A stretch of 64,000 nucleotides of DNA, from NCBI RefSeq assembly GCF_022024015.1, contig NZ_CP091786.1:3348001-3412000 (forward strand), in the 5' to 3' direction. This DNA comes from Prevotella sp. E9-3 (GTDB lineage Bacteria > Bacteroidota > Bacteroidia > Bacteroidales > Bacteroidaceae). Made by a program: the position numbers and the translations under genes. Below, piece after piece: positions 1,838-60,204 of this stretch. The notes under the pieces are model-generated. The model made no database searches, was not told where the DNA came from, and was given only the letters and a program-made list of their open reading frames with translations. Position 1 is the first letter of the stretch, and every line of letters starts with the position of its first letter.

Positions 1838-2239
1838 TTATACCGCTATCAATTCCTGGCCTATTTCGCGTACTGTATCAAGAATCATCGTGACCCTTGC
1901 TTCACTAGCCTTCTTCTTACCACTGATATACTGCGCCATTAGACTCTGAGAAATTCCCAAACGGCGTGCAATAGCAGAGACATTCAACTCTGGGTGAGCC
2001 ATAAAGACTTTGTAGAGTTGCGTCGTCTCCCGCTTATCAAAGAACCCTTCAAAACTCAAGTCTTCATCGATGTCCTCCCAATGCAGTCCGTACTCATCAG
2101 CTTCATAATTTGCACGTTGTTCTTTGGTTGCATATCTTAGACGAGGATAGTCATTAAACTTTTCGCATGCCTCACGTCCGTCAGCAGCCCTAATCCAAAC
2201 CGCATCGTCAGTCAGCCAAATCTTCTCAATCTTCTCCAT
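1838..2239 (-). CDS. DUF2442 / HTH (XRE-like) regulator, orphan antitoxin-like
   Basis: The 133-aa protein has two parts. Residues about 5-70 match the DUF2442 pattern (IWLTDDAVWIRAADGRE, DYPRLR.A, GLHWEDIDEDLSF.G). Residues about 80-130 form a Cro/CI-type helix-turn-helix (NVSAIARRLGISQSLMAQYI, then SGKKKAS). I chose the ATG at 2239; a TTG nine bases upstream is possible but would sit inside the -7 box at 2246-2253. DUF2442 proteins are usually paired with a DUF4160 partner in toxin-antitoxin-like modules; no partner is seen here. A perfect palindrome at 2271-2285 overlaps the expected -33 position, suggesting autoregulation (inference). Confidence 0.75.
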   Translation of the reverse strand: MEKIEKIWLTDDAVWIRAADGREACEKFNDYPRLRYATKEQRANYEADEYGLHWEDIDEDLSFEGFFDKRETTQLYKVFMAHPELNVSAIARRLGISQSLMAQYISGKKKASEARVTMILDTVREIGQELIAV

Positions 2240-2245
2240 ATTCCG

Positions 2246-2285
2246 CAAAGATAGGTAATTATTTTATTACCTCCAAATTTTGGAG
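2246..2285 (-). promoter_or_regulatory. promoter and palindromic operator-like site of the DUF2442-HTH gene
   Basis: TATCTTTG on the minus strand (2246-2253) is the -7 box. A perfect 15-bp palindrome, CTCCAAATTTTGGAG (7-bp arms around one base), occupies 2271-2285, where the -33 element should be. A bound HTH dimer there would block transcription. Confidence 0.6.
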
Positions 2286-2339
2286 CGACTTTTTTATTCA
2301 TCCTTCTTCCATCAGCCCTCATTTATCTTCCATCAGACT

Positions 2340-2492
2340 TCAGATGCCACTCATCTGCCCCGCGCATCTTGTCCTGTCAAAATGATCAAGAGAACCGTAC
2401 CCATGATTATACTGAAGGAAATCCTTGCTCAGCTTCACCCCCACTTCGCGAGAGTTTTCTATGATGCTGTATAGTTTTTCAAGTTTGGTCAT
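2340..2492 (-). pseudogene. truncated third gene of the helicase-methyltransferase operon
   Basis: A 50-codon frame starts at ATG 2492, only 10 bp after the methyltransferase stop at 2503. It begins MTKLEKLYSIIENSREVGV and ends abruptly after a low-homology tail. The N-terminus looks like that of a longer coiled, conserved protein that I have a faint memory of seeing next to such methyltransferases; I cannot name it. The frame is shorter than I would expect and its second half does not look conserved. I therefore call it truncated or decayed, but a genuine 50-aa protein cannot be excluded. Confidence 0.45.
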
Positions 2493-2502
2493 AATATAGT
2501 AG

Positions 2503-5433
2503 TTATTCGTCAGAATTTCTGTATCTTATATCATAATTAATGATGTATTCAATTTCATTATCTGTCAAACCGTATTTCTTGCCTATAAACTTATCAATTT
2601 TATCAATACAGGATTTTGATTTTCGAGCATAAAAACATCTCAGTCCTGATTTCATGGTTTTACTATTCTTTTGTAAATCTTTTAAATATGAGTCATATAA
2701 ATTACCTATTTCTTCCAAATCCCTATCTGTATAAGACTGATACGGGATTGGAAACATTGCCAATTCTGATGTCCTTAAATTATGCCAGTCAGAATGTATA
2801 AGCCAGAACCAATAGAATAGATTACTAGATAAGCTTGCGCCAACAAGGTTAGCGTATTTTTGGGGAACACTTATGTTTCCTTCAGCAGCAGAATGAGTAG
2901 GTTCTTTCATTATGACTTTATAATACCTGCCACCTGCTTTCCTGTAATAAATTGGAGTACTATTCTTGTAATATAGTCCACTCAATTCAGTCTTAACCAA
3001 ATGAAGCTTTTCTAATATATTAAGTTCAATACTATCTCCAACTTTGGGTATTCTACCGTTACGAACATATTTCAACACATTAATAAATTTCAAATTTCCA
3101 AGCAAAACCCAAAGAGATTCATCGGAATACCTTTTATTAATAGGTGTTGACATTAATTGTCTACATGTAGTTCCTGTTTTTCTAAATCCAATGATTGAGA
3201 CTTGTTGTTCGGCACTCTCAAAAATACGTTTGGGTCGATCACCATAGGAGCTTACACATATTTCCTTACAATTATCTATTAACAATTTGTGTAACCCAGA
3301 CATCGCATCAGACGCAGTTATGCTTAATGGAACAATAAACATTGACACACCATGTATCTTTATTGACTGATATCCAAAATCAATAAAGATGCTGAACGTA
3401 TCAGTAGAGCCTTTCTGCTTGCCAGCAATAGTCTTTGCAGAATTATAAATCTTTTTAAAAGCACTTTTTTCATATAAAGTAGTTTTGGCACCATAGGGGG
3501 GATTACCTATCGTTATATCAAAACCACCCTGTGAGAAAACATCGTAAAACCATGTATGCCATAGGAAGAACTGACTATTTCCATCTAAATTCAAGTCTAT
3601 TGTGCTTAAATCTATATGTTGTTCTTTCATTTGCTTTTTTACATTATCAATAATGGCTCGTTTGAGCGATACTTTTGCATTATGGTTTGTGCAATCATAA
3701 TATTGATGTATCATTTTTCGCAATTCTTGCCTATAAAAATCAAGCATATTATCAAATATTAGCAATGAATCTGTCTTATTCCATTTTGACGCAGTCATTG
3801 CAGATAGGTCAACACCCTTGTACTGCTCCAACAGCGAGTTACCCTGCATAATCTTGAAGTCGAGGTTGGGCAGAGCTTGTGGCGTTTCTTCGTCAACAAT
3901 GAGAGAGAGCCAGAAGCGGAGGCGGGCGATGTCAACAGCACCACGCTCGATATCAACTCCATAAATGTTTTGCTGAATGATATGCTTCTTGATTTCTGCT
4001 GCTTTGCTTTGTGTAATTCCTTCAAGGGCTGTACGGCAAAGGAAGAGTTCTTTCAGCAAGCCCATTGGGAATGCTCCAGAGCCAATAGCAGGGTCGCATA
4101 TCTTGACATTCTTCAGAGCCTCATCCACTTGCTGACGGAATTTGTCGTTAGTTCCAAGAGCTTTGACATCATGAGTGGTTACAAACTGACGAAGAGCCTC
4201 CTTCGTTGCCTCATCTTCTATGTTTGTCTGAAGATAGGCTATCAAAGACTCACGGCACATATAACTTACAATCTCCTTAGGCGTATAGAATGCACCTTTA
4301 TCTTTGTTGTCTTCGAGCAGGTTCTCAAAGATTCTGCCAAGCATCTCTGGGTCAACGCCTACTTCAGCATCATCAGGATCGTTCTCATCAATGGTAAAGT
4401 TGTAACTACTGAAGAAGTCCAACATCTGCTTCATATACTTGCCTGGAAGAGGAAAGTTGGTTTCATCTTGGACATCGCGCTCGAAGAGGCCACCATTAAG
4501 ATAGGGTGTACGATATTGTGGAAGTTGTTTTTCATCCTCGCTATTGAGATCGTTGAAAAGCGCCTCTAAAACGTTATCGATAAAGTGGTCTTTATCTGCT
4601 GTCTGAGCAAAGAGGTTCTGTATGAACTCCGCATCACCCGTACCCCATTCTGCACCAGCAGGCACACCCAGCCAGCCTTTCTTCTGAAGGAACTGGAGGA
4701 ATACAAGTCGTCCCATCAGTTTCTTTACATAGTCACGAATCGCTTTCTCTTGATTGTCAAACTTGGCAAACTGCTGCATGATATACGCATTAGGCTTTCC
4801 TTCTTGACGTTCTTCCCACTTGTTGGCAACCTTCACCATCCGCTTACCAGTAATAAAGAAGATGATATCTTCGTACTGCTGCTTATAACCCTTGAAGAAC
4901 ATATCGCTGACAGCATCTACAGAGAAGGCTTTGGTCAAATCCTTCAACGTAAGACTACTGTCGCGCAGTTTCTCAAACTGCTGAATGGCGGTGCGGCTAC
5001 GATGCCCCTCACCAAGCAAATAAGTGAAGCGTTTGGCATCGGTGGATTCTTTCTGGTAGCTGCCATCATCGGCAAACGTCCAGGCTTCACTAACGTAAGA
5101 GAATCGAAGCACACTCTCGTTCTTGCGATAGCAGAACATAAAGGCTCCAGCATTGCCATTGTTTCGCCAATCAGTCAGCAACATATCGCGGATACCTCTT
5201 CGATTGCGTTCAATATCTACGCTATCAGAAAGTTCGACTTCGTAGATGCTGATAGTCTGGTTGTCGCTCAATGTGATGGTACCCAGCCAAAGTGCCTGTT
5301 TGGCAAACTGACTACTGGTAAGAATCGTTGATGGCGTATTCCAGAATTTTATCTTATTGCCAAAAATGTCATGTAACAGCAATTGCCAGTTCTGACGATT
5401 GTATCTCGATTCGATGACTTCTTTATAGTTCAT
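2503..5433 (-). CDS. Eco57I-like DNA adenine methyltransferase with specificity domain
   Basis: This 976-aa protein contains the N6-adenine methyltransferase motifs of the type IIG/Eco57I class. AFYTPKEIV is near residue 380, the SAM-binding motif DPAIGSGAFPMG near 447, and the catalytic IGNPPYG near 643. The N-terminal third (ISIYEVELSD, then ERNRRGIRDML) resembles the N-termini of large bacterial methyltransferases of defence systems. The C-terminal third (after about residue 720) is likely the target-recognition domain, ending in the helical YGLTDNEIEYII typical of Eco57I-type enzymes. No nuclease motif is obvious; the nuclease is probably supplied by the upstream PLD-helicase, which ends 6 bp before this start. 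It probably methylates the host recognition site and specifies the target. The methyltransferase activity is well supported; the type of system is inferred. Confidence 0.85.
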   Translation of the reverse strand: MNYKEVIESRYNRQNWQLLLHDIFGNKIKFWNTPSTILTSSQFAKQALWLGTITLSDNQTISIYEVELSDSVDIERNRRGIRDMLLTDWRNNGNAGAFMFCYRKNESVLRFSYVSEAWTFADDGSYQKESTDAKRFTYLLGEGHRSRTAIQQFEKLRDSSLTLKDLTKAFSVDAVSDMFFKGYKQQYEDIIFFITGKRMVKVANKWEERQEGKPNAYIMQQFAKFDNQEKAIRDYVKKLMGRLVFLQFLQKKGWLGVPAGAEWGTGDAEFIQNLFAQTADKDHFIDNVLEALFNDLNSEDEKQLPQYRTPYLNGGLFERDVQDETNFPLPGKYMKQMLDFFSSYNFTIDENDPDDAEVGVDPEMLGRIFENLLEDNKDKGAFYTPKEIVSYMCRESLIAYLQTNIEDEATKEALRQFVTTHDVKALGTNDKFRQQVDEALKNVKICDPAIGSGAFPMGLLKELFLCRTALEGITQSKAAEIKKHIIQQNIYGVDIERGAVDIARLRFWLSLIVDEETPQALPNLDFKIMQGNSLLEQYKGVDLSAMTASKWNKTDSLLIFDNMLDFYRQELRKMIHQYYDCTNHNAKVSLKRAIIDNVKKQMKEQHIDLSTIDLNLDGNSQFFLWHTWFYDVFSQGGFDITIGNPPYGAKTTLYEKSAFKKIYNSAKTIAGKQKGSTDTFSIFIDFGYQSIKIHGVSMFIVPLSITASDAMSGLHKLLIDNCKEICVSSYGDRPKRIFESAEQQVSIIGFRKTGTTCRQLMSTPINKRYSDESLWVLLGNLKFINVLKYVRNGRIPKVGDSIELNILEKLHLVKTELSGLYYKNSTPIYYRKAGGRYYKVIMKEPTHSAAEGNISVPQKYANLVGASLSSNLFYWFWLIHSDWHNLRTSELAMFPIPYQSYTDRDLEEIGNLYDSYLKDLQKNSKTMKSGLRCFYARKSKSCIDKIDKFIGKKYGLTDNEIEYIINYDIRYRNSDE

Positions 5434-5439
5434 AGGACA

Positions 5440-8400
5440 TTAGTCTTTAAAAGATTCTGATAGTATGATGACAGCAGCCGATTCCTCTTCTGCATGCTGA
5501 CTCTCGCGATAATAGGTATTGTATTTGTTGGCCATGTCGAGCACTTGTTTTAGCGCATCCTCAAAGGTCAGTTTCGCTTTGCTACCACCTTGACGCTGCA
5601 AGTCCTTCTGAATACGTTGCAAGCGCTTGGCAATATAGGTGATGGTGCCTCTTTCAGTCAACTCTTTCAGTTGAATAATCTTCAGGCGAGTGTCGCCATC
5701 ATCTATATGGGGCAGCATGCTGTTTAGCAGGCTGACAGCCGTCGTAACCTGAGCACCAAGATTGCTACGTTGGCTTTGATTCGATTCTTCCTCGTGCAGT
5801 TCCTGTTCCTTGGTTTTATTGAATTTCTTCAGGGCTTTGTCAACATGCTCATGATGTTGTGGGATACGAGGAACGGCTTTCTCTTCCGGTTTGGCCTTGA
5901 AATAGTTGAGTGCATCGAGCACAGACAACTCTCGTGTCTGCTGGTCGTTCACCAGATAGAACAGTTTGCGGAAGTTTGTTTTGAGGAATACCAATGAGTC
6001 ACCTGACAAAGTTACCCCTTCTAACTCGCGAGGTTCACGGCCTGTACGACTGCGAAGCGACAACCTTTCAATGCGCTTATACTCTTTGCGATTCTGCTGA
6101 TAGAGTGCTCGCAATTCTTCATAGAAAGGCAGTTCCAAGTTGCGATCTTCCTGTTCGCGCTTGATGCTTTCCTTGAAAAGCTTATCAAGGTCGCGATCAA
6201 TAATCTCTTCTGTAGAATATATCTGATTGTCTTCACCAAACGTAGTGTGGAATGTCTGAATCTTACTCAACGCTATCTGATTGAGTTTGATTTCTTTATT
6301 ACCCTGACGCGATGGGTAGAATACGTAGTTATAGATGATGCCTGCCGTAGAACCGATACGATTCACACGACCTATGCGCTGCATCAGTCGTGTAGCGTTC
6401 CAAGGCGTGTCATAGTTGATGATGATGTTTGAGCGATGTAGGTTGACACCTTCCGCCAACACATCTGTTGTCAGGATAATGTTATAGTCATTCTTCTTCT
6501 GTTTCCAGTTGGCATCAAAGTTCTCGCGGATGGTCTTGAACAGCTGGCTGCGGTTCTGTGAGGAAATCACCAATACGTCTGGGCGATTAATGCGGCGCTG
6601 CAGATATTCAACGGTATCAACGGATTCTGAGAACACCACAATCTTTCCTTCTGGGTTACGTTCCTTCTTGAATAGCTCATGCTTCAGCAAGTCTTCGAAC
6701 TTGGCAAACTTCGAGTCGTCATCGTCATCGATATATTCCCACTCCAGCCACATATCGTCAAGCAACGCTTGGTCGTGTCTCAGTTGCTCGATATAATCCT
6801 CATCGAAGTCTTTTCTCTGGAAGGAGGCATTCTTGGGATTCACCTCTGCCTTCTCGTTCATCTTCTGCTCAATCTCCTCCTCGCTGTAGCCAGCCTCTAT
6901 CAGCGCATTGATGTCCAAGTCGGGGGCAATGAATATCTTATCATTCTCCCACATGTCTATCATGTTTTCGTTGGCCTGACGGAAGGCTTTCAGCGATTTG
7001 CAGAAGGCATAGAAACTGCTTTCCAAACGCTTTACCAAGCCGTTTTTGCGGATGCCTGCCAAACTGCGGCTGATAACCTCCGCATTGTCGTAGAGTCCTG
7101 GGGCAGCATCGGGTTTCAGATAGGCGATGGCTTGATAACGGGCGTAGGTCAGTTCCTTGTCAAGAATGTGCATCGCCTTTTCAAAGAGGTTGGCCAAGTG
7201 GTCGTTCAATTCATATTCCTTCTTGATGGGCTTGTCAACTTTGGGGAATCCGTTCACATCTTTATTATATCGCGCGATGTTCTCGATGTCGGTTCTTGTA
7301 CGGCGAACGGTCAGAGGCTTTATGACCCTATCGCGCACTTTCTCGGCCAGTTTCTTAAACTCTTTCAGGTCGAAGTTCTCCTGCTTGCGGAACTTACGGA
7401 ACTCCACCACCAAAGGTGAGAAGAAGGCTGTGAGATTGGGCACGCCATCAATCGTGCAATGACGCGGATCTTGGAACATCAGTATCTGGTAGTAGATATC
7501 CGCTGGTGTATTATTCATTGGTGTTGCTGAAATCAGCATCACCTTTTTCTTATAGCCCGGAATATAGCCTGTTTCAAGGCGAGGCATCTTGCAGATTTCC
7601 TGCAACTGATTGAAAGCGCCTGTGGTATGATTGCGGAACTTATGGGCCTCGTCAACCAGAACCAAGTCGTATTCGTCAGCATTCCAGTAATCGTAGTTGT
7701 CTTCGTCAAGCACTTTTGCGAGACTGCCGTTGCTTACAAAACGGGTATATTTATCGATTCCGAAATCCTTAAACGTAGTCTTCCAGTTCTGTTCAACGGC
7801 TGGCGGATAAACTACGAGGATTTTGGTGTGCTCCAGGCCGTTCTCTATCAAGAACTTCTTGGCAATCATCGTCGCAATCACCGTCTTGCCAAGACCTACT
7901 ACATCAGCCAGGAAGAAACCATCGTAACGCATCAGCTTCTGATAGCCTTCTATTACGGCATCTGCCTGATAGTCAAACTTGCTATAGCCTTCAGGCATAT
8001 CGAAAGGATCATCTTGGTCAATGGCCAGCACGCGGTCGCTGAAGTATTCCATCAGCATTTTAATGTATAACTCGTAAGGGGTGACATCGCCTTTCAAATA
8101 GGTCTTGTCGAGTGTGGCTTGATAGTCCTCTGCATTGATGGGTACATTCTTGGCCTCTTCCCACAAAAGTTCAAACTCGTTCTTGGCAAATGCGACATCC
8201 TCATATTGAGTCAGTTTTACATTAAACTCATATTGCTTGTCATCACCAAGTCCAAGACCATTGCCGCTAAGATTGCTACTACCAGTAATCGCAGCACCAA
8301 AAGTGTGTTGATTGAAATTATCTGGATAGAGAATATAAAATTTAGCATGAATCTTCTTTGACGGATGTGCACGAAGTTCTAATTTGCCGTCTATCAAGTC

Positions 8401-8760
8401 CTGCACCATCTGAAGCATACCATCTTCAATTATCTTGGTGTAGTGAGACTTCTCAATATCTTCTTTAAGTAGTCTTAGACATTCTTCCTTTACTTCCTCC
8501 TCTGCTCCAAAAAAGAGTTCGCCTTTCTGATGAGCACGTGCAATGTACTTGTCAACATCAATACCAATCAGAATGCGCACTTTATTGATTCCGTCAAGAA
8601 AGGGACGCAAAGCAAAATAGCCCGACGCACGAAGGAAACCAACGACAGCATCAAGATTCTTCACTTGAGGGTTGTTCTGGAGTATGCCCTCAAACTCTTT
8701 CATCAACGTATTCCCACCACGGTTAGTAAAAAAGTGGGACGAGATAGGTATGTCTGACAT
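5440..8760 (-). CDS. PLD-family nuclease fused to SNF2-like helicase (defence/restriction subunit)
   Basis: The protein is 1106 aa. Residues 1-210 form a phospholipase D-like domain with one HxK motif (KIHAKFYIL, His near 137) followed by TGSSNLSGNG near 158. Residues about 265-900 form a superfamily 2 helicase. Walker A is GLGKT near 288, DEAH (LVDEAHKFRN) near 370, motif III SATPMNN near 412, and motifs V and VI are LAEGVNLH near 768 and QRIGRVNRIG near 797. One HKD copy usually means that it dimerises for nuclease activity. The start ATG at 8760 follows an in-frame stop by 15 bases. With the methyltransferase 6 bp downstream this forms a split helicase-nuclease plus modification pair. The logic resembles Type ISP enzymes (one chain) or the helicase/methylase core of DISARM, but I see no drmA, drmB or BREX genes. 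Confidence 0.85.
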   Translation of the reverse strand: MSDIPISSHFFTNRGGNTLMKEFEGILQNNPQVKNLDAVVGFLRASGYFALRPFLDGINKVRILIGIDVDKYIARAHQKGELFFGAEEEVKEECLRLLKEDIEKSHYTKIIEDGMLQMVQDLIDGKLELRAHPSKKIHAKFYILYPDNFNQHTFGAAITGSSNLSGNGLGLGDDKQYEFNVKLTQYEDVAFAKNEFELLWEEAKNVPINAEDYQATLDKTYLKGDVTPYELYIKMLMEYFSDRVLAIDQDDPFDMPEGYSKFDYQADAVIEGYQKLMRYDGFFLADVVGLGKTVIATMIAKKFLIENGLEHTKILVVYPPAVEQNWKTTFKDFGIDKYTRFVSNGSLAKVLDEDNYDYWNADEYDLVLVDEAHKFRNHTTGAFNQLQEICKMPRLETGYIPGYKKKVMLISATPMNNTPADIYYQILMFQDPRHCTIDGVPNLTAFFSPLVVEFRKFRKQENFDLKEFKKLAEKVRDRVIKPLTVRRTRTDIENIARYNKDVNGFPKVDKPIKKEYELNDHLANLFEKAMHILDKELTYARYQAIAYLKPDAAPGLYDNAEVISRSLAGIRKNGLVKRLESSFYAFCKSLKAFRQANENMIDMWENDKIFIAPDLDINALIEAGYSEEEIEQKMNEKAEVNPKNASFQRKDFDEDYIEQLRHDQALLDDMWLEWEYIDDDDDSKFAKFEDLLKHELFKKERNPEGKIVVFSESVDTVEYLQRRINRPDVLVISSQNRSQLFKTIRENFDANWKQKKNDYNIILTTDVLAEGVNLHRSNIIINYDTPWNATRLMQRIGRVNRIGSTAGIIYNYVFYPSRQGNKEIKLNQIALSKIQTFHTTFGEDNQIYSTEEIIDRDLDKLFKESIKREQEDRNLELPFYEELRALYQQNRKEYKRIERLSLRSRTGREPRELEGVTLSGDSLVFLKTNFRKLFYLVNDQQTRELSVLDALNYFKAKPEEKAVPRIPQHHEHVDKALKKFNKTKEQELHEEESNQSQRSNLGAQVTTAVSLLNSMLPHIDDGDTRLKIIQLKELTERGTITYIAKRLQRIQKDLQRQGGSKAKLTFEDALKQVLDMANKYNTYYRESQHAEEESAAVIILSESFKD

Positions 8761-9280: not shown

Positions 9281-9340
9281 AAATTATAGCTAAAATTAGA
9301 AGAATTATAGCTATAATCGCGAAAATTATAGCTATAATTT
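9281..9340. repeat. three-unit palindrome array, 21-bp period (AGCT core), copy A
   Basis: Three palindromic units of the form AATTATAGCTATAATT lie head to tail. Their AGCT centres are at 9288, 9309 and 9330, exactly 21 bp (two helical turns) apart. The first unit is slightly degenerate. The array sits about 145 bp upstream of the -7 box of the leftward defence operon. The same arrangement recurs at 54143-54205, and a GGCC-core version at 21795-21856. Confidence 0.85.
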
Positions 9341-9450
9341 ATTTCAACCGTTGCACTATTAAAGTGAAAGGTATATTACATTACACAGTAACCGACATCA
9401 TTTTGAGAGTCAATAGAACTATGGCTGAAATTCAAAATAACAGTGGTAGC

Positions 9451-19089: not shown

Positions 19090-21636
19090 TTAGTCCTGAT
19101 AATAGATGCGCTTCACACGGTTGGAAACACCGGTCAGCACTTCATAGGGAATGGTTTCAAGAATGTCCGAGAGCACGGTGACAGGAAGTTCCTGACCGAA
19201 TATTTCTACTGAATCACCCTCCTGACAGTCAATGCCCGTCACATCGATCATAGCCACATCCATGCAGATATTGCCTACATAGGGCGCTTTCTGACCATTC
19301 ACCAGACAATAGCCATGACGATTGCCCAAGCGTCGGTTCAATCCGTCGGCATATCCGATAGGTATGGCTGCAATCACGCTGTCGCGATCAAGAATGGTTC
19401 TGCGGCTATAGCCTACAGAATCGCCTGCCTTTACATGGCGCATCTGCAAGATAGTGGTCTTCAGTGTGCTCACGGTTTTCAGTGTAGAGTGTAGAGTGGA
19501 GAGTGTAGAGTCTTCACTAGCATACGGCTCCACTCCATACAGTCCGATGCCCAGTCGGCACATGTCCATCTGGCGCTCGGGGAAATGCTCGATGCCGGCA
19601 GAGTTGTCCATGTGGCGCAGGATGCGATGACTGAAGGCCGACTGCAGTTTGCGACTTCCTTCATCGAAAAGGGCAAACTGAGTAGCTGAGAAATCATCGA
19701 ACTCATCACTATCGCTACCCACAAAATGAGAGAACACCGAACGGGGAATAAGTGCTGTCTGATGCTGAAGGCGGTCAACCAGCTCGTCGATATCGGCTTT
19801 GGGATCAAAGCCCAGACGGTGCATACCGGTATCCAGTTTGATATGTACAGGCCATCCGGTGATACCTTCCTTGCGGGCTGCACGAATCAGGGCATCCATC
19901 AAACGGAAAGAATACACCTCTGGCTCAAGATCATAGTCGAAGAGAGTCTTGAATGATGTCATCTCAGGGTTCATCACCATGATATTGGCAGTAATGCCGG
20001 CTTTGCGCAGGGCCACGCCCTCATCGGCCACAGCCACAGCCAGATAATCTACACGGTTGTCCTGCAGGGTCTTGGCTATTTCGATGGCACCGGCTCCATA
20101 GGCATCAGCCTTGATCATGCACACCATTTTCGTGTCGGTTTTCAGGAACGAACGGAAATGGTTCAGGTTATCGACCACAGCCTGAAGGTTCACCTCAAGA
20201 ATGGTTTCATGAACTTTCTGCTCCAACAGTTCGGTGATGCGCTCAAAACCGAACCGGCGTGCACCTTTCAGCAGCACCAGTTCGTTGGCAAGCTGACTGA
20301 ACACTGTACTATTCACAAACTGTTCAACATCATGGAAGAAATGGCGCTCGGGAACATCAATCAGAGCTGCCTGCGAGGCTATCTCATCACCGATACCAAT
20401 GAGTTTGGCCACCCCACGGTTTTTACACATGTTGGACACCTGCTGATAGAGCGAAGCCAACGACTCGCCACTCTGATAGATATCGCTGAGTATGAGGGTG
20501 ATGGGCGATGGGTGCAACTTATTGGAAGCCTCGCCACGACGGTTCACAAAGTCGAGCGCGATGTCGAGCGAATTGATATCGTTGTTATAGGAATCGTTGA
20601 TGAGGGTGAGACCGCGCTGGCCTTCCTTCACTTCCAGGCGCATGGCCACAGGTTCGAGCAGTGGCATGCGTTCTGCCAGATCCTCATGGGTAAGCCCAAG
20701 GTAGAGTGCTGTGGCCGCACAGGTGATACTGTTTTCTATGGAAGCCTCATCGATGAAGGGAATCACGTATGAAGAGCGTACACCTTTATATATATAGGTA
20801 ATCTGTGAAGAGACGGAATCGGGCAGTGCCTGAACGCTCTCTACCTTGAACTCAACATTGTCGCTGATGCGCGACCAGCCGATGCGCTCGCCCTGATAAC
20901 CGGAACGGCGCACGCAGCGGCTCACAATATCATCATCGCTGGGATAGACAATGGCGGCCGTGTCGTGAAACAACTGAAGTTTCTCCATGCACTTCTCTTC
21001 CATGGAGCGGAAATTCTCCTGATGGGCGGCGCCCAAGGAAGTGAGCACGCCCACGGTGGGTTGGATGATATCGCGCAGGGCAGCCATCTCACCGGGCTGA
21101 CTGATACCTGCCTCAAACAGACCTACCTGAGACTGTTCGCCCAACAACCAGACTGAAAGGGGCACACCAATCTGAGAGTTATAGCTGCGAGGCGAACGAG
21201 TGACATTCAACGAAGAGCGCTCGCCAGATGCTGTTCCCACTGCTACGGCAGAAAGCAACTGGTACAGCCACTCCTTGACCATGGTCTTTCCGTTGGAACC
21301 GGTAATGCCTACGATGGGAATATCGAACTCGTCACGATGACGCTCGGCCAGTCGCTGAAGAGCAGCCAGAGGAGAAGGCACCTGCAGGAAGTTGGCTTCC
21401 GGATAAGATGCCAAATCAGGTACCTCTTTCACTACAAACGAGCGAACGCCACGCCGATAAAGTTCAGGGATATACTTATGTCCGTCGTTGCGCTGAGTGC
21501 GCAGGGCAAAGAAAAGTGTCTGTTCAGGGAAACGAAGTGAACGGCTGTCAGTGAGTAGCCATCCCACGGTGGTCTCAGTGCTTCCATAGCGGCGGGCACC
21601 AATCAGTGTCGCCACCTTTACGATGCTATAGGTCAT
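19090..21636 (-). CDS. murF-alr: fused MurF ligase / alanine racemase
   Basis: This 848-aa fusion is typical of Bacteroidota. Residues 1 to about 470 are MurF, which adds D-Ala-D-Ala to UDP-MurNAc-tripeptide; the P-loop is GITGSNGKT near 108-116. Residues about 475-848 are a PLP-dependent alanine racemase, with the PLP lysine in MIKADAYGAG near 508 and the second catalytic Tyr in SVGYSRR near 740. One polypeptide therefore makes D-Ala and uses the dipeptide in peptidoglycan synthesis. A low-complexity insert STLSTLHSTLKTVSTLKT sits at about residue 709, encoded by TAGAGTG-type repeats. The -7 box is at 21688-21695. Confidence 0.96.
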   Translation of the reverse strand: MTYSIVKVATLIGARRYGSTETTVGWLLTDSRSLRFPEQTLFFALRTQRNDGHKYIPELYRRGVRSFVVKEVPDLASYPEANFLQVPSPLAALQRLAERHRDEFDIPIVGITGSNGKTMVKEWLYQLLSAVAVGTASGERSSLNVTRSPRSYNSQIGVPLSVWLLGEQSQVGLFEAGISQPGEMAALRDIIQPTVGVLTSLGAAHQENFRSMEEKCMEKLQLFHDTAAIVYPSDDDIVSRCVRRSGYQGERIGWSRISDNVEFKVESVQALPDSVSSQITYIYKGVRSSYVIPFIDEASIENSITCAATALYLGLTHEDLAERMPLLEPVAMRLEVKEGQRGLTLINDSYNNDINSLDIALDFVNRRGEASNKLHPSPITLILSDIYQSGESLASLYQQVSNMCKNRGVAKLIGIGDEIASQAALIDVPERHFFHDVEQFVNSTVFSQLANELVLLKGARRFGFERITELLEQKVHETILEVNLQAVVDNLNHFRSFLKTDTKMVCMIKADAYGAGAIEIAKTLQDNRVDYLAVAVADEGVALRKAGITANIMVMNPEMTSFKTLFDYDLEPEVYSFRLMDALIRAARKEGITGWPVHIKLDTGMHRLGFDPKADIDELVDRLQHQTALIPRSVFSHFVGSDSDEFDDFSATQFALFDEGSRKLQSAFSHRILRHMDNSAGIEHFPERQMDMCRLGIGLYGVEPYASEDSTLSTLHSTLKTVSTLKTTILQMRHVKAGDSVGYSRRTILDRDSVIAAIPIGYADGLNRRLGNRHGYCLVNGQKAPYVGNICMDVAMIDVTGIDCQEGDSVEIFGQELPVTVLSDILETIPYEVLTGVSNRVKRIYYQD

Positions 21637-21794: not shown

Positions 21795-21856
21795 AAATTT
21801 TGGCCATTATTTTCTAAATTTTGGCCAAAATTCAAAAAATAATGGCCAAAATTTAT
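21795..21856. repeat. three-unit palindrome array, 21-bp period (GGCC core), copy B
   Basis: Three units related to AAATTTTGGCCAAAATTT have GGCC centres starting at 21802, 21823 and 21844, exactly 21 bp apart. The middle unit is the most symmetric. The array lies about 100 bp upstream of the murF-alr -7 box and downstream of the GSCFA stop. The geometry equals the AGCT-core arrays at 9.3 and 54.2 kb. Confidence 0.85.
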
Positions 21857-21917: not shown

Positions 21918-22754
21918 TCAAGACCAACGGGCCAACAGTTCGGCCTCACGCCTTTTGGTTTCAGCCAGAAATTGCTGATACTCTTCACTCTCAGGATGGA
22001 AAGGACGATGAGCCAATGCTTCTTTCAAGGGTTTCCATTCCTTTAGGAACTCAACGGCTTTGGGTGAGAAATAATGGTCAACCAATTGTTGCCACAGGTA
22101 TTCAACCGCCTGGTCTGTGGGGTGCAACATGTCCTCCTTATAAAAACGATAGTCGCGCAACTCGTCAAGCACCACCTCGTAGGCCGGGAAATAGGAAAGC
22201 GATGAATTGGGTACAAAGAGTTTCGAATCGTGCACCAGTCTGTCGATGGCAAGAAGGAGGGTGGCTTTCGACAACTGACTGATGTGGTAGCCATACTTGG
22301 CATAGCGGATGGGGCTGACTGTAAACACCACATGAATATCAGGACGGTGAGCACGCAGTAATTCCACCGACAATCGAAGAAAATTGACGGTTTCATCGAT
22401 AGAAAGGTCTTCTTCGGAGAAGAGTCGTTGGGGTCGTTTCTCACAGTTATCCACTATTTCGCCAGTAGAGATCAATCGGTAGATACGGTTGGTACCCAAA
22501 GTGACAAACACCACTCTGGGAAAAGCTTTCTCGCCACCACTGGCAAGATGCTCTTCGCAGAATCGCTCAATGGTATGCAACACTGAGGCAGGATTGTACA
22601 TCGTGCCGTAAGGGTTGATTACCACAGGAAAATGCTCATTAAGGAAGTGCTTACCGATATTGTCTGCAAAACAAGAACCGACAAAAAGCATCGATTCCAT
22701 CGGTTCGATTTGGAAGGCTGGTTCTGGGATGTCAACTTTAGTTCGAAACTCCAT
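21918..22754 (-). CDS. GSCFA-domain protein
   Basis: The 278-aa protein has the family signature FVGSCFADNIG (GSCFA at residues 26-30). It also has the SGNH-hydrolase-like pieces FVTLGTNRIYR, VVFTVSPIRYA and DMLHPTDQAVEYLW, whose Ser and Asp-x-x-His could form an esterase triad. The family is common in Bacteroidota and some plants' bacterial partners; its substrate is not known. No signal peptide is evident. It is the last gene of a radical SAM-purN-GSCFA run, 16 bp after the purN stop. Confidence 0.85.
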   Translation of the reverse strand: MEFRTKVDIPEPAFQIEPMESMLFVGSCFADNIGKHFLNEHFPVVINPYGTMYNPASVLHTIERFCEEHLASGGEKAFPRVVFVTLGTNRIYRLISTGEIVDNCEKRPQRLFSEEDLSIDETVNFLRLSVELLRAHRPDIHVVFTVSPIRYAKYGYHISQLSKATLLLAIDRLVHDSKLFVPNSSLSYFPAYEVVLDELRDYRFYKEDMLHPTDQAVEYLWQQLVDHYFSPKAVEFLKEWKPLKEALAHRPFHPESEEYQQFLAETKRREAELLARWS

Positions 22755-31463: not shown

Positions 31464-31495
31464 GTATTTCCCATAGTTCTGCCAGCAGCATGCCG

Positions 31496-31512
31496 TATCT
31501 CTTAAAGAGATA
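31496..31512. repeat. palindrome TATCTCTTAAAGAGATA
   Basis: This 17-bp palindrome (8-bp arms) lies 32 bp after the protease stop. It is probably part of its 3' end or a protein site; there is no T-tract next to it. Confidence 0.4.
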
Positions 31513-31688
31513 GGCCGTTTCTCTGGAAGCAATATGCCGTTTCGCTAATTAGGGGAGAAAGGTACTACTTTTTAATGAAAGTGGAAAGTGAGGAGATTTT
31601 TTAGATATAAATGTTTGTTAAAAGTTAGCTGCCGCTTGTGAATTTGCTCAATTTTTACGTATTTTGCATTTAAATAACTTAAAACATC

Positions 31689-53103: not shown

Positions 53104-53976
53104 TTATCCAATGATTTTCTCGTCCAACAGTTCTTTGATCATTCCCTCGATGTCAGCATCAGAAGCCGTCAAAGTCTTCGACTCCTTAGCCTGGAACACG
53201 ATGTTCTTAATGGCCTTCACCTTGGTGGGTGAGCCATTCAGACCACACTGGTTTACATCGCCATCAACATCAGCTACGCTCCACTGGTTCAGATTCAGCT
53301 CGGGGCGCTCCTCATACAGATAGTCGTATGGTGTGCCCTCGGCAGGACGTTCCATCGGACAAGTAGCGCGCTTGTACTTCATCACCAGTTTGGCGTTCTG
53401 GGGGCGGCAAGGAGCTGCACTACCATTTACGGTAATCACTACAGGCAGTGGAGCCTCAACAGTCTCTACGCCACCATCGATGACACGCTTGATAGTAGCC
53501 TTGCCATCCTTAACGCTGAGCACTTCCTCAGCATAAGTAACCTGGTTGAGGCCCAGCTTCTGAGCCACCTGAGGACCTACCTGAGCGGTATCGCCATCGA
53601 TAGCCTGACGACCACCAATCACGATATCAACATCGCCAATCTTCTTAATGGCAGTAGCCAAAGCATAAGAGGTAGCCAGGGTGTCGGCACCAGCAAACAG
53701 ACGGTCGGTCAGCAGCCAACCGGTATCGGCACCACGATAAAGTCCCTGACGGATGATTTCACCTGCACGTGGAGGGCCCATCGTGAGGATTCCTACGGTA
53801 GAACCAGGATTCTGCTCCTTCAGTCGGAGAGCCTGTTCTAATGCATTCAAGTCTTCTGGATTAAAGATAGCAGGTAAGGCAGCTCGGTTTACGGTACCTT
53901 CGGCAGTCATGGCATCCTTACCCACATTTCGGGTGTCTGGCACTTGTTTGGCCAGCACAACAATTTTTAAAGCCAT
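53104..53976 (-). CDS. etfB: electron transfer flavoprotein beta subunit
   Basis: The 290-aa subunit begins MALKIVVLAKQVPDTRNVG and has the AMP/ETF fold: NPEDLNALEQALRLKE near residue 40, and GGRQAIDGDTAQVGPQVAQKLGL near 121-143. EtfAB is a heterodimer that moves electrons from acyl-CoA dehydrogenase to the quinone pool or, in bifurcating forms, to ferredoxin. Which type this is cannot be told here. Promoter at 54028-54035. Confidence 0.95.
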   Translation of the reverse strand: MALKIVVLAKQVPDTRNVGKDAMTAEGTVNRAALPAIFNPEDLNALEQALRLKEQNPGSTVGILTMGPPRAGEIIRQGLYRGADTGWLLTDRLFAGADTLATSYALATAIKKIGDVDIVIGGRQAIDGDTAQVGPQVAQKLGLNQVTYAEEVLSVKDGKATIKRVIDGGVETVEAPLPVVITVNGSAAPCRPQNAKLVMKYKRATCPMERPAEGTPYDYLYEERPELNLNQWSVADVDGDVNQCGLNGSPTKVKAIKNIVFQAKESKTLTASDADIEGMIKELLDEKIIG

Positions 53977-54142: not shown

Positions 54143-54205
54143 TAAAATTATAGCTATAATTCGGATAATTTTAGCTATAATTCGTGAAATTATAGCTATA
54201 ATTTA
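54143..54205. repeat. three-unit palindrome array, 21-bp period (AGCT core), copy C
   Basis: Three AATTATAGCTATAATT-type units have AGCT centres at 54152, 54173 and 54194, exactly 21 bp apart. Spacers contain CG dinucleotides, as in part of copy A at 9.3 kb. It lies between the divergent etf and CE12 promoters: 110 bp upstream of one -7 box and 37 bp upstream of the other. Confidence 0.85.
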
Positions 54206-54292: not shown

Positions 54293-55975
54293 ATGAAACA
54301 CTTTTTTGCCACCGTTACTCTGTCGCTGTTGGCGCTATCGGCCAGCGGCCAGAATTTCGATAACCTCCCCGACCCTATTGAAGATGTAAACAAGGTAGTC
54401 GATAACACGCCCGACTCTATTGCCAAGGCCCTGATGTCGCGCCCTGCTCCAGGTTCTACCCGTAAGGGAAATCAGCCTGTGCTGTTTCTCATAGGTAACA
54501 GTACCATGCGCAACGGCACCAAAGGTGACGGCTCTAACGGACAATGGGGATGGGGCTACTATGCCAGCAAATATTTTGACGGAAAGAAGATTGCGGTGGA
54601 AAACCAGGCACTGGGCGGTATGTCAACTCGCACGTTCTATACCGACCTGTGGCCGGCCGTACGTGAGGCACTGAAACCCGGCGATTGGGTAATCGTGTCG
54701 ATAGGCCACAACGACAATGGTGAATTCTTTGACCAAAAGCGCGCACGTGCCGTCATTCCCGGCGTAGATCCCGACACCTGCTACGTAGGTTTCAACCAGC
54801 GCACGCAGAAGCAGGACACTGTATATAGCTATGGTACCTATCTGCGGAAATACATCCACGAGATACGTCAGAAAGGGGCCAACCCTATCCTGATGTCGCT
54901 CACCCCACGCGACGCCTATGACGCCAATGGGCTTATCATTCGCAAGCCCCAAACAGGATGGGCTTCCTATATTGCTGAGGCAGAGGGAGTACCCTTCGTT
55001 GACCTGAACGAACGCTCTGGACAGAAACTCGATTCCTACAGCACTTGGAAAAAGAAATATCATTTCTACGGCGATAAGATTCACACCTCGAAATGGGGTG
55101 CTGAGATGAATGCCCATTCGGCGGCTGAAGGCATCTGGGAGAGTAAGAACGCGCAACTGAAACCGCTGCAGGACATGATGGTGAATGTAGAGGAGGAATG
55201 CTATGAGGTTGATCGCACCGGCGGAAAGCCCGTGGTATTCTTTACCGGCGACTCTACTGTGAAGAACATGGACAACGACGACAACGGTATGTGGGGATGG
55301 GGCGCACAGGCACAGACCGTATTCGACGAGTCGAAGATCACCCTGTGCAACGCTGCACGTGCCGGACGCAGTACACGTTCGTTCATTCGTGAAGGACTGT
55401 GGGAAAAGGTGTACAACTCGCTGCAGCCCGGCGATTTCGTAACCATTGAGTTCGGCCACAACGATATTTGTCCCATGACCGACAAGAAAGCCCGTGGAGT
55501 GATAGCCACCGGACGCGACAGCAGTCATGTGTACAAGTTGGACAACGGCACTTACGAGCTGGTTTACTCGTTCGGCTGGTACCTGAAGAAAATGATTGAC
55601 GACACTCGCGAGAAAGGTGCTACGCCTATTCTCGTTTCGCTCACCCCACGCAACGAATGGCCTGACGGAAAGATAGAACGCCGCGACGCTTCTTACGGTA
55701 AATGGTACCGTGAAGTGGTAGAGGAAACAGGAGTAGAATTCGTTGACCTGCATAATATCTCGGCCGACTTCCTGGACAAGAAGTTCAGCGTAAAGAAGTT
55801 GCCTAAGGACAAGGAGAAAGCCAAGGCCAAGATAGCCAAACTGAAAGAGAAGGCTGGCAAGTATTTCAAGAAAGACCACACCCACGCTTCAAAACTGGGA
55901 GCACAGATGAATGCCCGGTCAGTGGCCAAAGGTCTGCGTGCCAACCGCTCTCCATTAGTAAAATACCTGAAATGA
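54293..55975 (+). CDS. double-domain rhamnogalacturonan acetylesterase (CE12, SGNH fold)
   Basis: The 560-aa secreted protein (signal MKHFFATVTLSLLALSASGQ) holds two SGNH/GDSL esterase domains. Domain 1 (about 60-280) has FLIGNSTMRNG with Ser near 72, GGMSTRTF, GHNDNGEF and the D-x-x-H in GDKIHTSKWG near 262. Domain 2 (about 300-555) has FTGDSTVKN near 319, AGRSTRSF, GHNDICPM and KDHTHASKLG near 528. CE12 enzymes remove acetyl groups from galacturonate in rhamnogalacturonan. In domain 1 the usual GDS is GNS. Both triads otherwise look complete. It pairs functionally with the PL11 lyase. Confidence 0.9.
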   Translation: MKHFFATVTLSLLALSASGQNFDNLPDPIEDVNKVVDNTPDSIAKALMSRPAPGSTRKGNQPVLFLIGNSTMRNGTKGDGSNGQWGWGYYASKYFDGKKIAVENQALGGMSTRTFYTDLWPAVREALKPGDWVIVSIGHNDNGEFFDQKRARAVIPGVDPDTCYVGFNQRTQKQDTVYSYGTYLRKYIHEIRQKGANPILMSLTPRDAYDANGLIIRKPQTGWASYIAEAEGVPFVDLNERSGQKLDSYSTWKKKYHFYGDKIHTSKWGAEMNAHSAAEGIWESKNAQLKPLQDMMVNVEEECYEVDRTGGKPVVFFTGDSTVKNMDNDDNGMWGWGAQAQTVFDESKITLCNAARAGRSTRSFIREGLWEKVYNSLQPGDFVTIEFGHNDICPMTDKKARGVIATGRDSSHVYKLDNGTYELVYSFGWYLKKMIDDTREKGATPILVSLTPRNEWPDGKIERRDASYGKWYREVVEETGVEFVDLHNISADFLDKKFSVKKLPKDKEKAKAKIAKLKEKAGKYFKKDHTHASKLGAQMNARSVAKGLRANRSPLVKYLK

Positions 55976-58676: not shown

Positions 58677-60134
58677 TTAGTTCTCTTTCCAGAAACTGCG
58701 GGTGAAAAGCACCAGTACCGCCAGTATTTCAAGACGGCCTACCAGCATCAGCAGTGCGCACGCCCATTTCATTGCATCGGTCAGATCGGCCCACGACATC
58801 ACAGGGCCGATATTGGTATCAAGACCTGCTCCGACATTGCTCACCAGACTGAGGGCGATGGTCACCGAGTTGGTTATATCCACTCCTGAGCCATTCACCA
58901 TCACCGTTACTCCTATCAGCATACCCAGATAGAGCAGCAGCATGGCCAACAACGATACCAATCGACTTTGCGGAACGCTCTGTCCATTCACCTTCACAGG
59001 CAGAACGGCATTGGGATGGAGGATATGCCGAATCTCATTGCGCACCACCTTGTACAGCATCAGTCCGCGAATGCATTTGAATCCACCCGTTGTTGAACCG
59101 GCACAGGCTCCGATAAACATCAAGCCACCAAGCACAAACCAGGTGATGGGAGGCCACATGCCGGCATTGTCGTTAGACAGGCCAGTGGTGGTCATAAACG
59201 ATACCACCTGGAACAAGGCCGAACGGAAAGCAGGTTCATAGTTATAGTGCAGTCGGTAAACGAGCATATACATGATGAAGAGTGTGGCCACAGCAATGAT
59301 GCTCACATAGACACGGAACTCAGAATTACGTACTACCGTCCCTATACGCAGTCGGAAGATAGACATATATAATAAGGTGAAGTTGATACCTGCCAAAAAC
59401 ATAAACAGAATGGACAGATACTCAATGGTGACAGAATTAAAGAATACCGTCGAGCCATTATGGGTAGAGAAACCACCGGTAGCCGTTGTTGTCATGGCAT
59501 AGTTCAAGGCATCAAACCAGTCCATGCCTGCTGCCCAGAAACTCAATCCGCAGGCTGCTGTGAGCAAGAGGTAGATAGACCATATCCACTTGGCAGTAGT
59601 ACTCAGTCGGGGGTGCATCTTCGAACGCATAGGGCCTGTTGCCTCGGCAGCAAACACCTTTACGCTACCACCTACCAATGAAGGCAACAGGGCGATGGTG
59701 AAGAATACGATTCCCAAACCGCCTATCCACTGCATCAGTGAGCGCCAGAACAGAATGCCATGAGGCAGCCGTTCCACATCATCAATAGTAGTAACGCCCG
59801 TAGTGGTGAAACCAGACATGGTTTCGAAGAAGGCTTCCGAGAGGTTGGTCAATGAACCGTGAATAAGAAATGGCAGCATACCGAACACGCTGAACACCAG
59901 CCATGTGGCTGTTACCACCACATAGGCATCGCGGCGCGACAGACTGTTCTCTGCCGACCGGCCTTGTAACAGGAAAAGGAAAGCGGAGCTGAACGTGATA
60001 AGGGCCGACATGACGAAAGCCATCACATCGTCCTCATGATGGCACAACGCCATTATCAGGCACCAAGTCATGAAGAATGCCTCGATAAACAGCAATGAGC
60101 CAAGAATCTTTAATATGATACGCCAGTTTACCAT
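58677..60134 (-). CDS. trkH: potassium uptake protein TrkH
   Basis: The 485-aa channel subunit has four pore-loop units, including FETMSGFTTTGVTT near residue 107, AMTTTATGGFSTHNG near 220, and VSFMTTTGLSND and later NVGAGLDTNIGP. These give the K+ selectivity filter. About ten membrane helices are visible. It works with TrkA, encoded 78 bp upstream across a 9-bp tandem repeat. Confidence 0.95.
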   Translation of the reverse strand: MVNWRIILKILGSLLFIEAFFMTWCLIMALCHHEDDVMAFVMSALITFSSAFLFLLQGRSAENSLSRRDAYVVVTATWLVFSVFGMLPFLIHGSLTNLSEAFFETMSGFTTTGVTTIDDVERLPHGILFWRSLMQWIGGLGIVFFTIALLPSLVGGSVKVFAAEATGPMRSKMHPRLSTTAKWIWSIYLLLTAACGLSFWAAGMDWFDALNYAMTTTATGGFSTHNGSTVFFNSVTIEYLSILFMFLAGINFTLLYMSIFRLRIGTVVRNSEFRVYVSIIAVATLFIMYMLVYRLHYNYEPAFRSALFQVVSFMTTTGLSNDNAGMWPPITWFVLGGLMFIGACAGSTTGGFKCIRGLMLYKVVRNEIRHILHPNAVLPVKVNGQSVPQSRLVSLLAMLLLYLGMLIGVTVMVNGSGVDITNSVTIALSLVSNVGAGLDTNIGPVMSWADLTDAMKWACALLMLVGRLEILAVLVLFTRSFWKEN

Positions 60135-60150
60135 CTTTATTTAGAAAAAA

Positions 60151-60204
60151 GTACTATAGGCACTATAGGTACTATAGGTACTATAGCCACTATAGCCACT
60201 ATAG
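60151..60204. repeat. 9-bp tandem repeat (six copies) between trkA and trkH
   Basis: Six units occur in a row: GTACTATAG, GCACTATAG, GTACTATAG, GTACTATAG, CCACTATAG and CCACTATAG. The units share ACTATAG and vary only in the first two bases. The tract fills most of the 78-bp gap. Confidence 0.9.

What the first reader, a model, noticed from the sequence alone, without database searches (positions are those of the whole stretch)
9281..9340. Triple palindrome array with exact 21-bp period, AGCT core, upstream of the defence operon
Three AATTATAGCTATAATT-type palindromes have centres at 9288, 9309 and 9330. The 21-bp step is two DNA turns, so three dimers would sit on one face. The same design recurs at 54.2 kb, and with a different core at 21.8 kb, next to unrelated genes. 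In each case it sits 100-145 bp upstream of a leftward promoter. This looks like a dispersed regulatory or architectural element, not ordinary AT-rich spacer.
Basis: partly seen in the sequence, partly recalled or inferred. Interest (0 to 1): 0.75.

Follow-up and report, generated by a model that had tools for sequence, protein, structure and literature searches.

The report
Histone-like protein's dispersed triple docking sites
About 70 near-identical three-part DNA palindromes are scattered between genes of this Prevotella-type chromosome but almost absent round its replication terminus, and they match the control site of a gene for a histone-like protein, which suggests an undescribed system for marking or organising the bacterial chromosome.

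Summary
The window's three arrays belong to a genome-wide family of 39 AGCT-type and 30 GGCC-type arrays: three 16-bp units (AATNNTRGCYANNATT) at exact 21-bp steps with free 5-bp spacers, between genes in every orientation. Between 1.294 and 2.337 Mb only one was found (1.453 Mb); the gap is centred on the replication terminus (cumulative GC-skew peak 1.853 Mb).

In five species the array lies between a promoter-like motif and the start codon of an orthologous HU-family gene (HU-HIG, PF18291); two more diverged orthologues carry 3x21-bp arrays of other sequence there. The orthologue is in 9 of 398 genus genomes; 7 of those 9 are among the 20 with arrays. In array-bearing genomes other HU-HIG paralogues often carry their own triple repeats, and the two other operators searched for were again dispersed (36 places in G078; 15 in G086 and at least 40 in G169).

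Best reading: HU-HIG proteins with private, autoregulatory, dispersed docking sites, working like Noc/SlmA-type chromosome marks. The protein link is strong but indirect; the cellular role is inferred. Against it: 13 of the 20 array genomes lack this orthologue, and 65 further HU-HIG genes show upstream triples no more often than controls.

The parts
9282..9339 (.). AGCT-class triple array: units 9282-9297, 9303-9318, 9324-9339; spacers AGAAG and GCGAA; outer flanks CTGAAATA and TATTTCAA
9340..9431 (.). Segment related (88% over 92 bp) to the segment between the AGCT and GGCC arrays of a 151-bp composite pair at 1,086,219/1,086,370; no intact GGCC array follows it here
21796..21853 (.). GGCC-class triple array, dyad-symmetric as a whole: AATTTTGGCCATTATT / AATTTTGGCCAAAATT / AATAATGGCCAAAATT; between a MurF-Alr fusion gene (19090-21636, -) and a GSCFA gene (21918-22754, -)
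54146..54203 (.). AGCT-class triple array: units 54146-54161, 54167-54182, 54188-54203; between a leftward ETF-domain gene (53104-53976, -) and a GDSL gene (54293-55975, +)

Best explanation
The arrays are docking sites of an HU-fold DNA-binding protein of the HU-HIG family; in this genome the candidate is the 129-aa product of the gene at 3,221,371-3,221,757, outside the window. Shown: three palindromic units at an exact two-turn step; units conserved far more than spacers or flanks; one such array between a promoter-like motif and the start codon of the HU-HIG gene in five species; dispersal, through their own genomes, of the upstream arrays of two other HU-HIG types that were searched for; a large gap round the terminus in this genome. 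Inferred: HU-HIG dimers bind the palindromes cooperatively on one DNA face and repress their own gene when the dispersed sites are filled; the roughly 70 complexes act as chromosome-position marks (compaction, replication-progress counting or division control), as Noc and SlmA sites do.
For: (1) Array between a TAnnTTTG motif and the ATG of the HU-HIG gene in G000, G074, G128, G179 and G023; the diverged orthologues of G078 and G086 carry 3x21-bp arrays with TTGCAA and TGCA cores there. So 7 of 7 orthologues at 54% identity or more have a 3x21-bp array upstream. (2) Co-distribution: orthologue (E<=1e-35) in 9 of 398 genomes, 7 of them among the 20 of 398 with arrays; Fisher p 9e-9, not corrected for kinship. 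(3) Other paralogues in genomes chosen for having arrays: setting aside 3 orthologues and 2 low-complexity cases, 9 of 22 have an upstream triple-repeat score of at least 10 of 16, against 8 of 289 controls (p 1e-7; some of the 9 are near-copies of each other). (4) Prediction tested: the G078 operator has 36 BLAST places in G078 and 0 in G086, G169 and G128; the G086/G169 operator has 15 in G086, at least 40 in G169 (40 of 61 candidates scored) and 0 in G141 and G302; own operators counted. (5) Selection: in 14 non-independent pairs of related sites flanks are 80%, units 97% and spacers 56% identical; one site changed class in all three units (14 differences in 58 bp) beside 65 identical flanking bases. 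(6) Terminus: 0 of 54 merged loci within 10% of genome length of ter, 10.8 expected; largest-gap P 3.5e-5 (AGCT alone 1.25e-4, GGCC alone 0.012). (7) HU fold: AF2 pLDDT 92 for orthologue L319; best PDB match 4fmr, then HU/IHF.
Against: 13 of 20 array genomes gave no orthologue at E<=1e-35, among them near-complete G141, G302, G290 and G271. Of their HU-HIG genes (12, 11, 14 and 13 rows) upstreams of 10, 7, 4 and 10 were read, and none had an RGCY-type array. G086 has RGCY arrays although its orthologue's operator has a TGCA core. Orthologue L322 (62%) has no array. In the wider HU-HIG set, 12 of 74 score at least 10, but 7 of those 12 are genes already seen; of 65 new genes 5 do (3 without low-complexity cases), not above controls (p 0.07 and 0.43), so upstream arrays are not a general feature of HU-HIG genes. 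PF18291 also passes its cut-off in 9 of 14 control genomes including E. coli, so the name alone does not set these proteins apart from HU. HU-family proteins mostly bind with little sequence specificity (recalled). The terminus gap is shown in one genome; G141 has two arrays at 1.42 Mb, near its skew switch. No binding or cell-biology data.
Confidence: 0.57

Rival explanations
1. A conventional regulon: HU-HIG (or another factor) is a transcription regulator and the arrays control some 50 flanking genes.
For: Operator-like position at the HU-HIG gene; outward TAnnTTTG motifs within 150 bp are above background (17 right, 21 left against 4.3 expected), inward ones nearer to it (7 and 6).
Against: 17 of 71 sites lie between convergent genes. 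In the part of relatives' arrays that was fetched, HU-HIG is the only neighbour family shared by three genomes; 16 other clusters link two genomes each, 9 of them within close pairs. Outward promoters are expected at any intergenic point, and no intergenic control was run. The terminus gap is not explained.
Confidence: 0.2
2. A small non-autonomous mobile repeat (MITE- or REP-like) that arose from an HU-HIG operator and spread without function.
For: Related flanks among copies: 8 intact GGCC/AGCT pairs at exactly 151 bp and shared flanking segments up to about 240 bp outside rRNA duplications; copy number differs widely, about 9 places in G074 against 69 here.
Against: Units conserved beyond flanks; class change in place; other operator types dispersed in other species; arms evenly filled (20/19 and 15/15) but terminus nearly empty; no common transposase-like neighbour among shared clusters. 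Insertion ends and empty sites were not tested.
Confidence: 0.17
3. The terminus gap only reflects gene content: arrays sit in old intergenic DNA and the terminus region is denser in coding or newer.
For: Sampled noncoding share is lower there: 8.7% (13 stretches) against 13.0% (7 stretches) and 9.6% in the window.
Against: A one-third reduction still predicts about 7 of 54 loci within 10% of ter; none is found, and no other pair of units scoring 22 of 24 or more remains between 1.30 and 2.336 Mb apart from the array at 1.453 Mb.
Confidence: 0.25

Closest known systems
Noc and its binding sites (NBS), Bacillus subtilis
   Same: About 70 palindromic sites round most of the chromosome and absent from the terminus (PMC4331003, passages seen); here 69 arrays with a terminus gap.
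   Different: Single sites (recalled) and a ParB-related protein there; here exact triples at 21 bp, an HU-fold candidate binder, and unit sequence that differs between species and paralogues.
SlmA and its sites, Escherichia coli
   Same: A similar distribution is stated in PMC4331003 (passage).
   Different: TetR-family protein (recalled); not HU fold, not fixed triples.
HU-HIG family (PF18291) and its relative 4fmr
   Same: Protein scores 73 bits, cut-off 26.2; model of an orthologue matches 4fmr and HU/IHF.
   Different: No target site for this family was found in our paper searches; proposed roles (recalled: Burroughs et al. 2017, not held) do not include dispersed operator arrays.
IHF
   Same: A sequence-specific member of the HU fold (recalled).
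   Different: Single asymmetric sites (recalled), not palindromic triples.
REP/RAYT elements and MITEs
   Same: Dispersed intergenic palindromes, some with related flanks.
   Different: No common transposase-like neighbour seen; fixed three-unit geometry; operator-like copy at a host gene.
Lambda OR/OL-type triple operators
   Same: Three palindromic sites in a row controlling the binder's own gene (recalled).
   Different: HU fold, and the array recurs at dozens of chromosomal loci.

Membership tests
HU-HIG (PF18291) protein | Match above the family's curated cut-off | tested here: met
   73.1 bits against 26.2; PF00216 (ordinary HU) only 20.4, under its cut-off. The PF18291 model also passes in 9 of 14 control genomes including E. 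coli, so it is not exclusive.
HU-HIG (PF18291) protein | HU fold | tested here: met
   AF2 model of orthologue L319, pLDDT 92.2, pTM 0.68; Foldseek 4fmr E 8e-5, HU and IHF chains next
Noc/NBS-type nucleoid occlusion | Dozens of palindromic sites absent from the terminus | tested here: met
   69 arrays; 1 between 1.294 and 2.337 Mb, in this genome only
Noc/NBS-type nucleoid occlusion | Binder is a ParB/Noc-family protein | not tested
   No search for a Noc-family gene was made; the candidate binder is HU-fold, so membership is not claimed
Noc/NBS-type nucleoid occlusion | Inhibits division over the nucleoid | not testable with these tools
   needs cell biology
Autoregulatory operator | Site between promoter and start codon of the binder's own gene | tested here: met
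   Promoter-like TAnnTTTG, then array, then ATG in G000, G074, G128, G179 and G023
Autoregulatory operator | The protein binds the site | not testable with these tools
   only co-distribution and operator dispersal
MITE/REP mobile element | Related element body with ends; partner transposase | tested here: inconclusive
   related flanks in a subset; no transposase family among shared neighbours; insertion ends not tested
CRISPR array | Variable number of direct repeats with long unique spacers, near cas genes | tested here: not met
   three units, 5-bp spacers, 69 arrays at 54 merged loci; cas genes not searched
Phage or plasmid element | Present on phages or plasmids | tested here: not met
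   array 1: no match at E<=0.01 in phages or plasmids; an exact two-unit AGCT pattern: none in IMG/VR; GGCC arrays not searched there

The most novel reading that the evidence does not exclude
Rumen-type Prevotella run private chromosome-address systems: in a lineage one HU-HIG protein reads its own triple-palindrome code, placed dozens of times round the chromosome but not at the terminus, with one copy as feedback operator, so that free HU-HIG reports how many sites are replicated and couples replication progress to nucleoid structure or division. Protein and code co-evolve, and paralogues create parallel codes in one cell.
Probability: 0.27. Interest if true: 0.92.

Novelty: new variant of a known kind. 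Interest (0 to 1): 0.8.

Why it matters
HU-HIG proteins come in many paralogues (up to 14 PF18291 rows per genome), and our searches found no described target; this gives a concrete predicted target for several. It would be an HU-family protein with strong, paralogue-specific site recognition, and a candidate terminus-excluded chromosome mark in a phylum for which our paper searches listed no nucleoid-occlusion site system. Each step can be tested by EMSA, ChIP-seq and gene removal.

Tried and rejected
Rejected: chance AT-rich palindromes; a link to the defence operon (arrays lie beside diverse genes); a leftward-promoter rule; RNA genes as the rule (20 sources: partial 16S rRNA in L002 and L004, a tRNA in L005, and a window tRNA at 42 kb away from the arrays; tRNAs in 3 of 55 loci); phage or plasmid origin of array 1. 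Looked for and not seen: a clear terminus gap in G141, which has few RGCY arrays and two of them at 1.42 Mb. Of 81 relatives' loci, 12 had no triple at the threshold; 6 of these 12 are two-unit arrays. G016, G024 and G010 had no convincing match (best E 0.05). No solved structure matched the G000 protein by sequence.

Corrected on re-checking: a claim that the 80-locus HU-HIG set was independent support. Nine of its 74 usable genes had been seen before, 7 of its 12 positives among them; the 65 new genes do not exceed controls. Because of this I lowered the best explanation from 0.60 to 0.57, the novel case from 0.30 to 0.27, and raised the mobile-repeat rival from 0.15 to 0.17. The identical flank at 137,991/162,776 is 65 bp, not the 72 first noted.

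Literature: searches listed no paper on these arrays or on HU-HIG sites (listings and abstract starts only; open-licence library). PMC4331003 was seen as passages. The Burroughs 2017 HU-superfamily paper is not held and is cited from recall. For G141, 120 kb of random stretches showed, outside its HU-HIG locus at 5.4 kb, one full CTAG-type array (L259) and one partial (L261). Script notes: the histogram is labelled ter-to-ori but runs ori-to-ter; one search failed on a wrong strand assumption and was redone; the upstream stretches printed for L280 and L284 were wrong (contig ends) and were read again.

Full report
OBSERVATION. The three arrays are in the window as described, with centres about 1.5 bp right of those given. 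In the whole 3,733,400-bp single-contig genome (G000; window = 3,348,001-3,412,000) two BLASTN searches give 71 distinct places: 69 intact arrays (39 AGCT-class, 30 GGCC-class) and two decayed GGCC sites. Both searches scored 40 of 53 candidates. The 39 AGCT arrays hold 73 of 74 forward and 73 of 76 reverse matches of the half-unit, so that set is nearly complete. In 68 aligned arrays (39 + 29; the one at 2,909,667 was mis-centred then and left out) there are no gaps over 74 columns and 23 invariant columns. The common unit is AATNNTRGCYANNATT; the two 5-bp spacers are free in sequence and fixed in length. Most GGCC arrays are dyad-symmetric as a whole.

ANATOMY. Outer flanks tend to CTGAAATA...TATTTCAG. 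Eight intact GGCC/AGCT pairs share a 151-bp centre distance, with related segments between many of them; the window's first array keeps such a segment on its right (9340-9431) without an intact GGCC array. So part of the family spread by duplication of a few hundred bases. In 14 non-independent pairs picked with flank identity under 95%, flanks are 80% identical (local BLAST values), units 97%, spacers 56%: the units are held by selection. At 137,991 and 162,776 the 65 bases beside the array are identical and 4 of 93 differ, yet the arrays differ at 14 of 58 positions and in all three unit cores, AGCT against GGCC, which points to a class change in place.

PLACEMENT. Of 71 sites, crude ORF calling gives 24 divergent, 29 tandem, 17 convergent and 1 undetermined neighbourhood. 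Promoter-like TAnnTTTG motifs point outward on both sides, as expected of intergenic DNA; no intergenic control was run. GC skew is mostly positive in the first half of the contig and negative in the second, with the cumulative maximum of the scanned part at 1,853,141. All of 1,300,000-2,339,999 was scanned: one array (1,453,125) precedes the pair at 2,336,599/2,336,750, with no other pair of units scoring 22 of 24, and a lone AGCT half-unit at 1,533,350. Arms hold 20/19 AGCT and 15/15 GGCC arrays. After merging within 5 kb, 0 of 54 loci lie within 10% of genome length of ter (10.8 expected; largest-gap P 3.5e-5; AGCT alone 1.25e-4; GGCC alone 0.012). The noncoding share is lower there (8.7% of 13 stretches against 13.0% of 7), which weakens but does not remove the effect. 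Only this genome could be tested; in G141, with few such arrays, two lie at 1.42 Mb, near its skew switch.

RELATIVES. A sequence-only model finds arrays in 20 of 398 genus genomes (8 of 175 good ones). Of 81 relatives' loci, 69 have a triple at the threshold used, with GGCC, AGCT or mixed RGCY cores; 6 of the other 12 are two-unit arrays. One 4-unit array (L216) and two 2-unit arrays in G074 were also seen. G179 (L149) and G023 (L123) share an array with the same spacers but different cores.

THE PROTEIN. In one search the only neighbour family shared by three genomes is a 129-aa protein of Pfam PF18291, HU-HIG (73 bits, cut-off 26.2); add G023 and G179. In G000, G074, G128, G179 and G023 the array lies between a TAnnTTTG motif and the start codon. 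The orthologue (E<=1e-35) is in 9 of 398 genomes; the seven most similar are all array genomes (Fisher p 9e-9, uncorrected for kinship). The two more diverged of the seven also carry 3x21-bp arrays upstream, with TTGCAA (G078) and TGCA (G086) cores. The predicted fold of an orthologue (L319, the G179 gene by contig position) is HU-like, nearest to 4fmr from Bacteroides vulgatus.

OTHER PARALOGUES AND A TESTED PREDICTION. In ten array genomes, 14 of 25 HU-HIG genes with readable upstreams score at least 10 of 16 for a triple repeat; leaving out the 3 orthologues and 2 low-complexity cases, 9 of 22 against 8 of 289 controls (12 of 293 before four array-linked rows were removed). Periods are 21 or 22 bp in 8 of the 9: ACAAAGTCGACGAGTTTGT (G086, G169), TTCTAGACTCTAGAA (G302), TTCTAGCCCCTAGAA (G141), TTTTGGGCCAAAA (G271, two genes) and others. 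Twenty further genes gave 4 (two low-complexity) and six more at 9 with period 22. In a wider set of 80 loci, 12 of 74 usable ones score, but 7 of the 12 were already known; of 65 new genes 5 score, 3 without low complexity, which is not above controls. So the feature is common in array genomes and not general for the family. If arrays are docking sites, other operators should be dispersed too. Both that were searched for are: G078's at 36 BLAST places in its genome, the G086/G169 one at 15 and at least 40, and none in the other genomes queried (own operators included). Of 40 such loci inspected, 20 of 20 from G086/G169 and 17 of 20 from G078 are triples (three of the 40 are the operators themselves).

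MECHANISM. Most likely, dimers of HU-HIG sit on each palindrome, three in a row on one face, at their own gene (feedback) and at dozens of chromosomal marks. The analogy is Noc, with about 70 palindromic sites missing from the terminus (PMC4331003, passages). I put the HU-HIG/array link near 0.75, the chromosome-mark role near 0.45 and the joint statement at 0.57.

AGAINST. Thirteen of 20 array genomes gave no orthologue at the threshold, some of them near-complete, and none of the 31 HU-HIG upstreams read in G141, G302, G290 and G271 has an RGCY array; there the RGCY arrays may be relics or serve another protein. Orthologue L322 has no array. No binding data exist. The seven paper searches list nothing on the arrays, within an open-licence library only.

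Noticed in passing
window 1838-8760: Leftward cluster of a Helicase_C/SNF2-related protein (5440-8760), an Eco57I/MmeI-like methylase (2503-5433) and a DUF2442 protein (1838-2248), a likely restriction or defence operon.
   Followed up: partly
window about 60135-60204, and L116 (genome about 3.65 Mb): Another upstream repeat: 9-bp tandem units like CTATAGTRC before the leftward gene 58677-60134, with a similar ACTATAG tract in L116.
   Followed up: no
L102, genome about 1.310 Mb: Three 25-bp repeats with the core AAGTTATCAGAACA upstream of a leftward gene, inside the array-poor terminus region.
   Followed up: no
window about 31484-31555: 22-bp-period triple repeat around ATGCCGT with a TCTCTTAAAGAGA palindrome, upstream of the 1076-aa ORF at 31689.
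   Followed up: no
L515 (genome 2,600,000-2,619,999): Very strong GC skew of -0.211 over 20 kb, unlike the other sampled stretches.
   Followed up: no
L002 and L004 (genome 0.90 and 3.16 Mb): Two composite array pairs lie in a long duplicated region (97% identity) next to 16S rRNA.
   Followed up: partly
L438-L457 (G086 and G169): Several arrays of ACAAASTCGWCGASTTTGT have outer flanks like AAACCATTTT...AAAATGG, parallel to the CTGAAATA flanks of the RGCY arrays.
   Followed up: no
L418-L437 (G078): TTGCAA-core and TAGCTA-core units are mixed within single arrays, as if one binder accepted both.
   Followed up: partly
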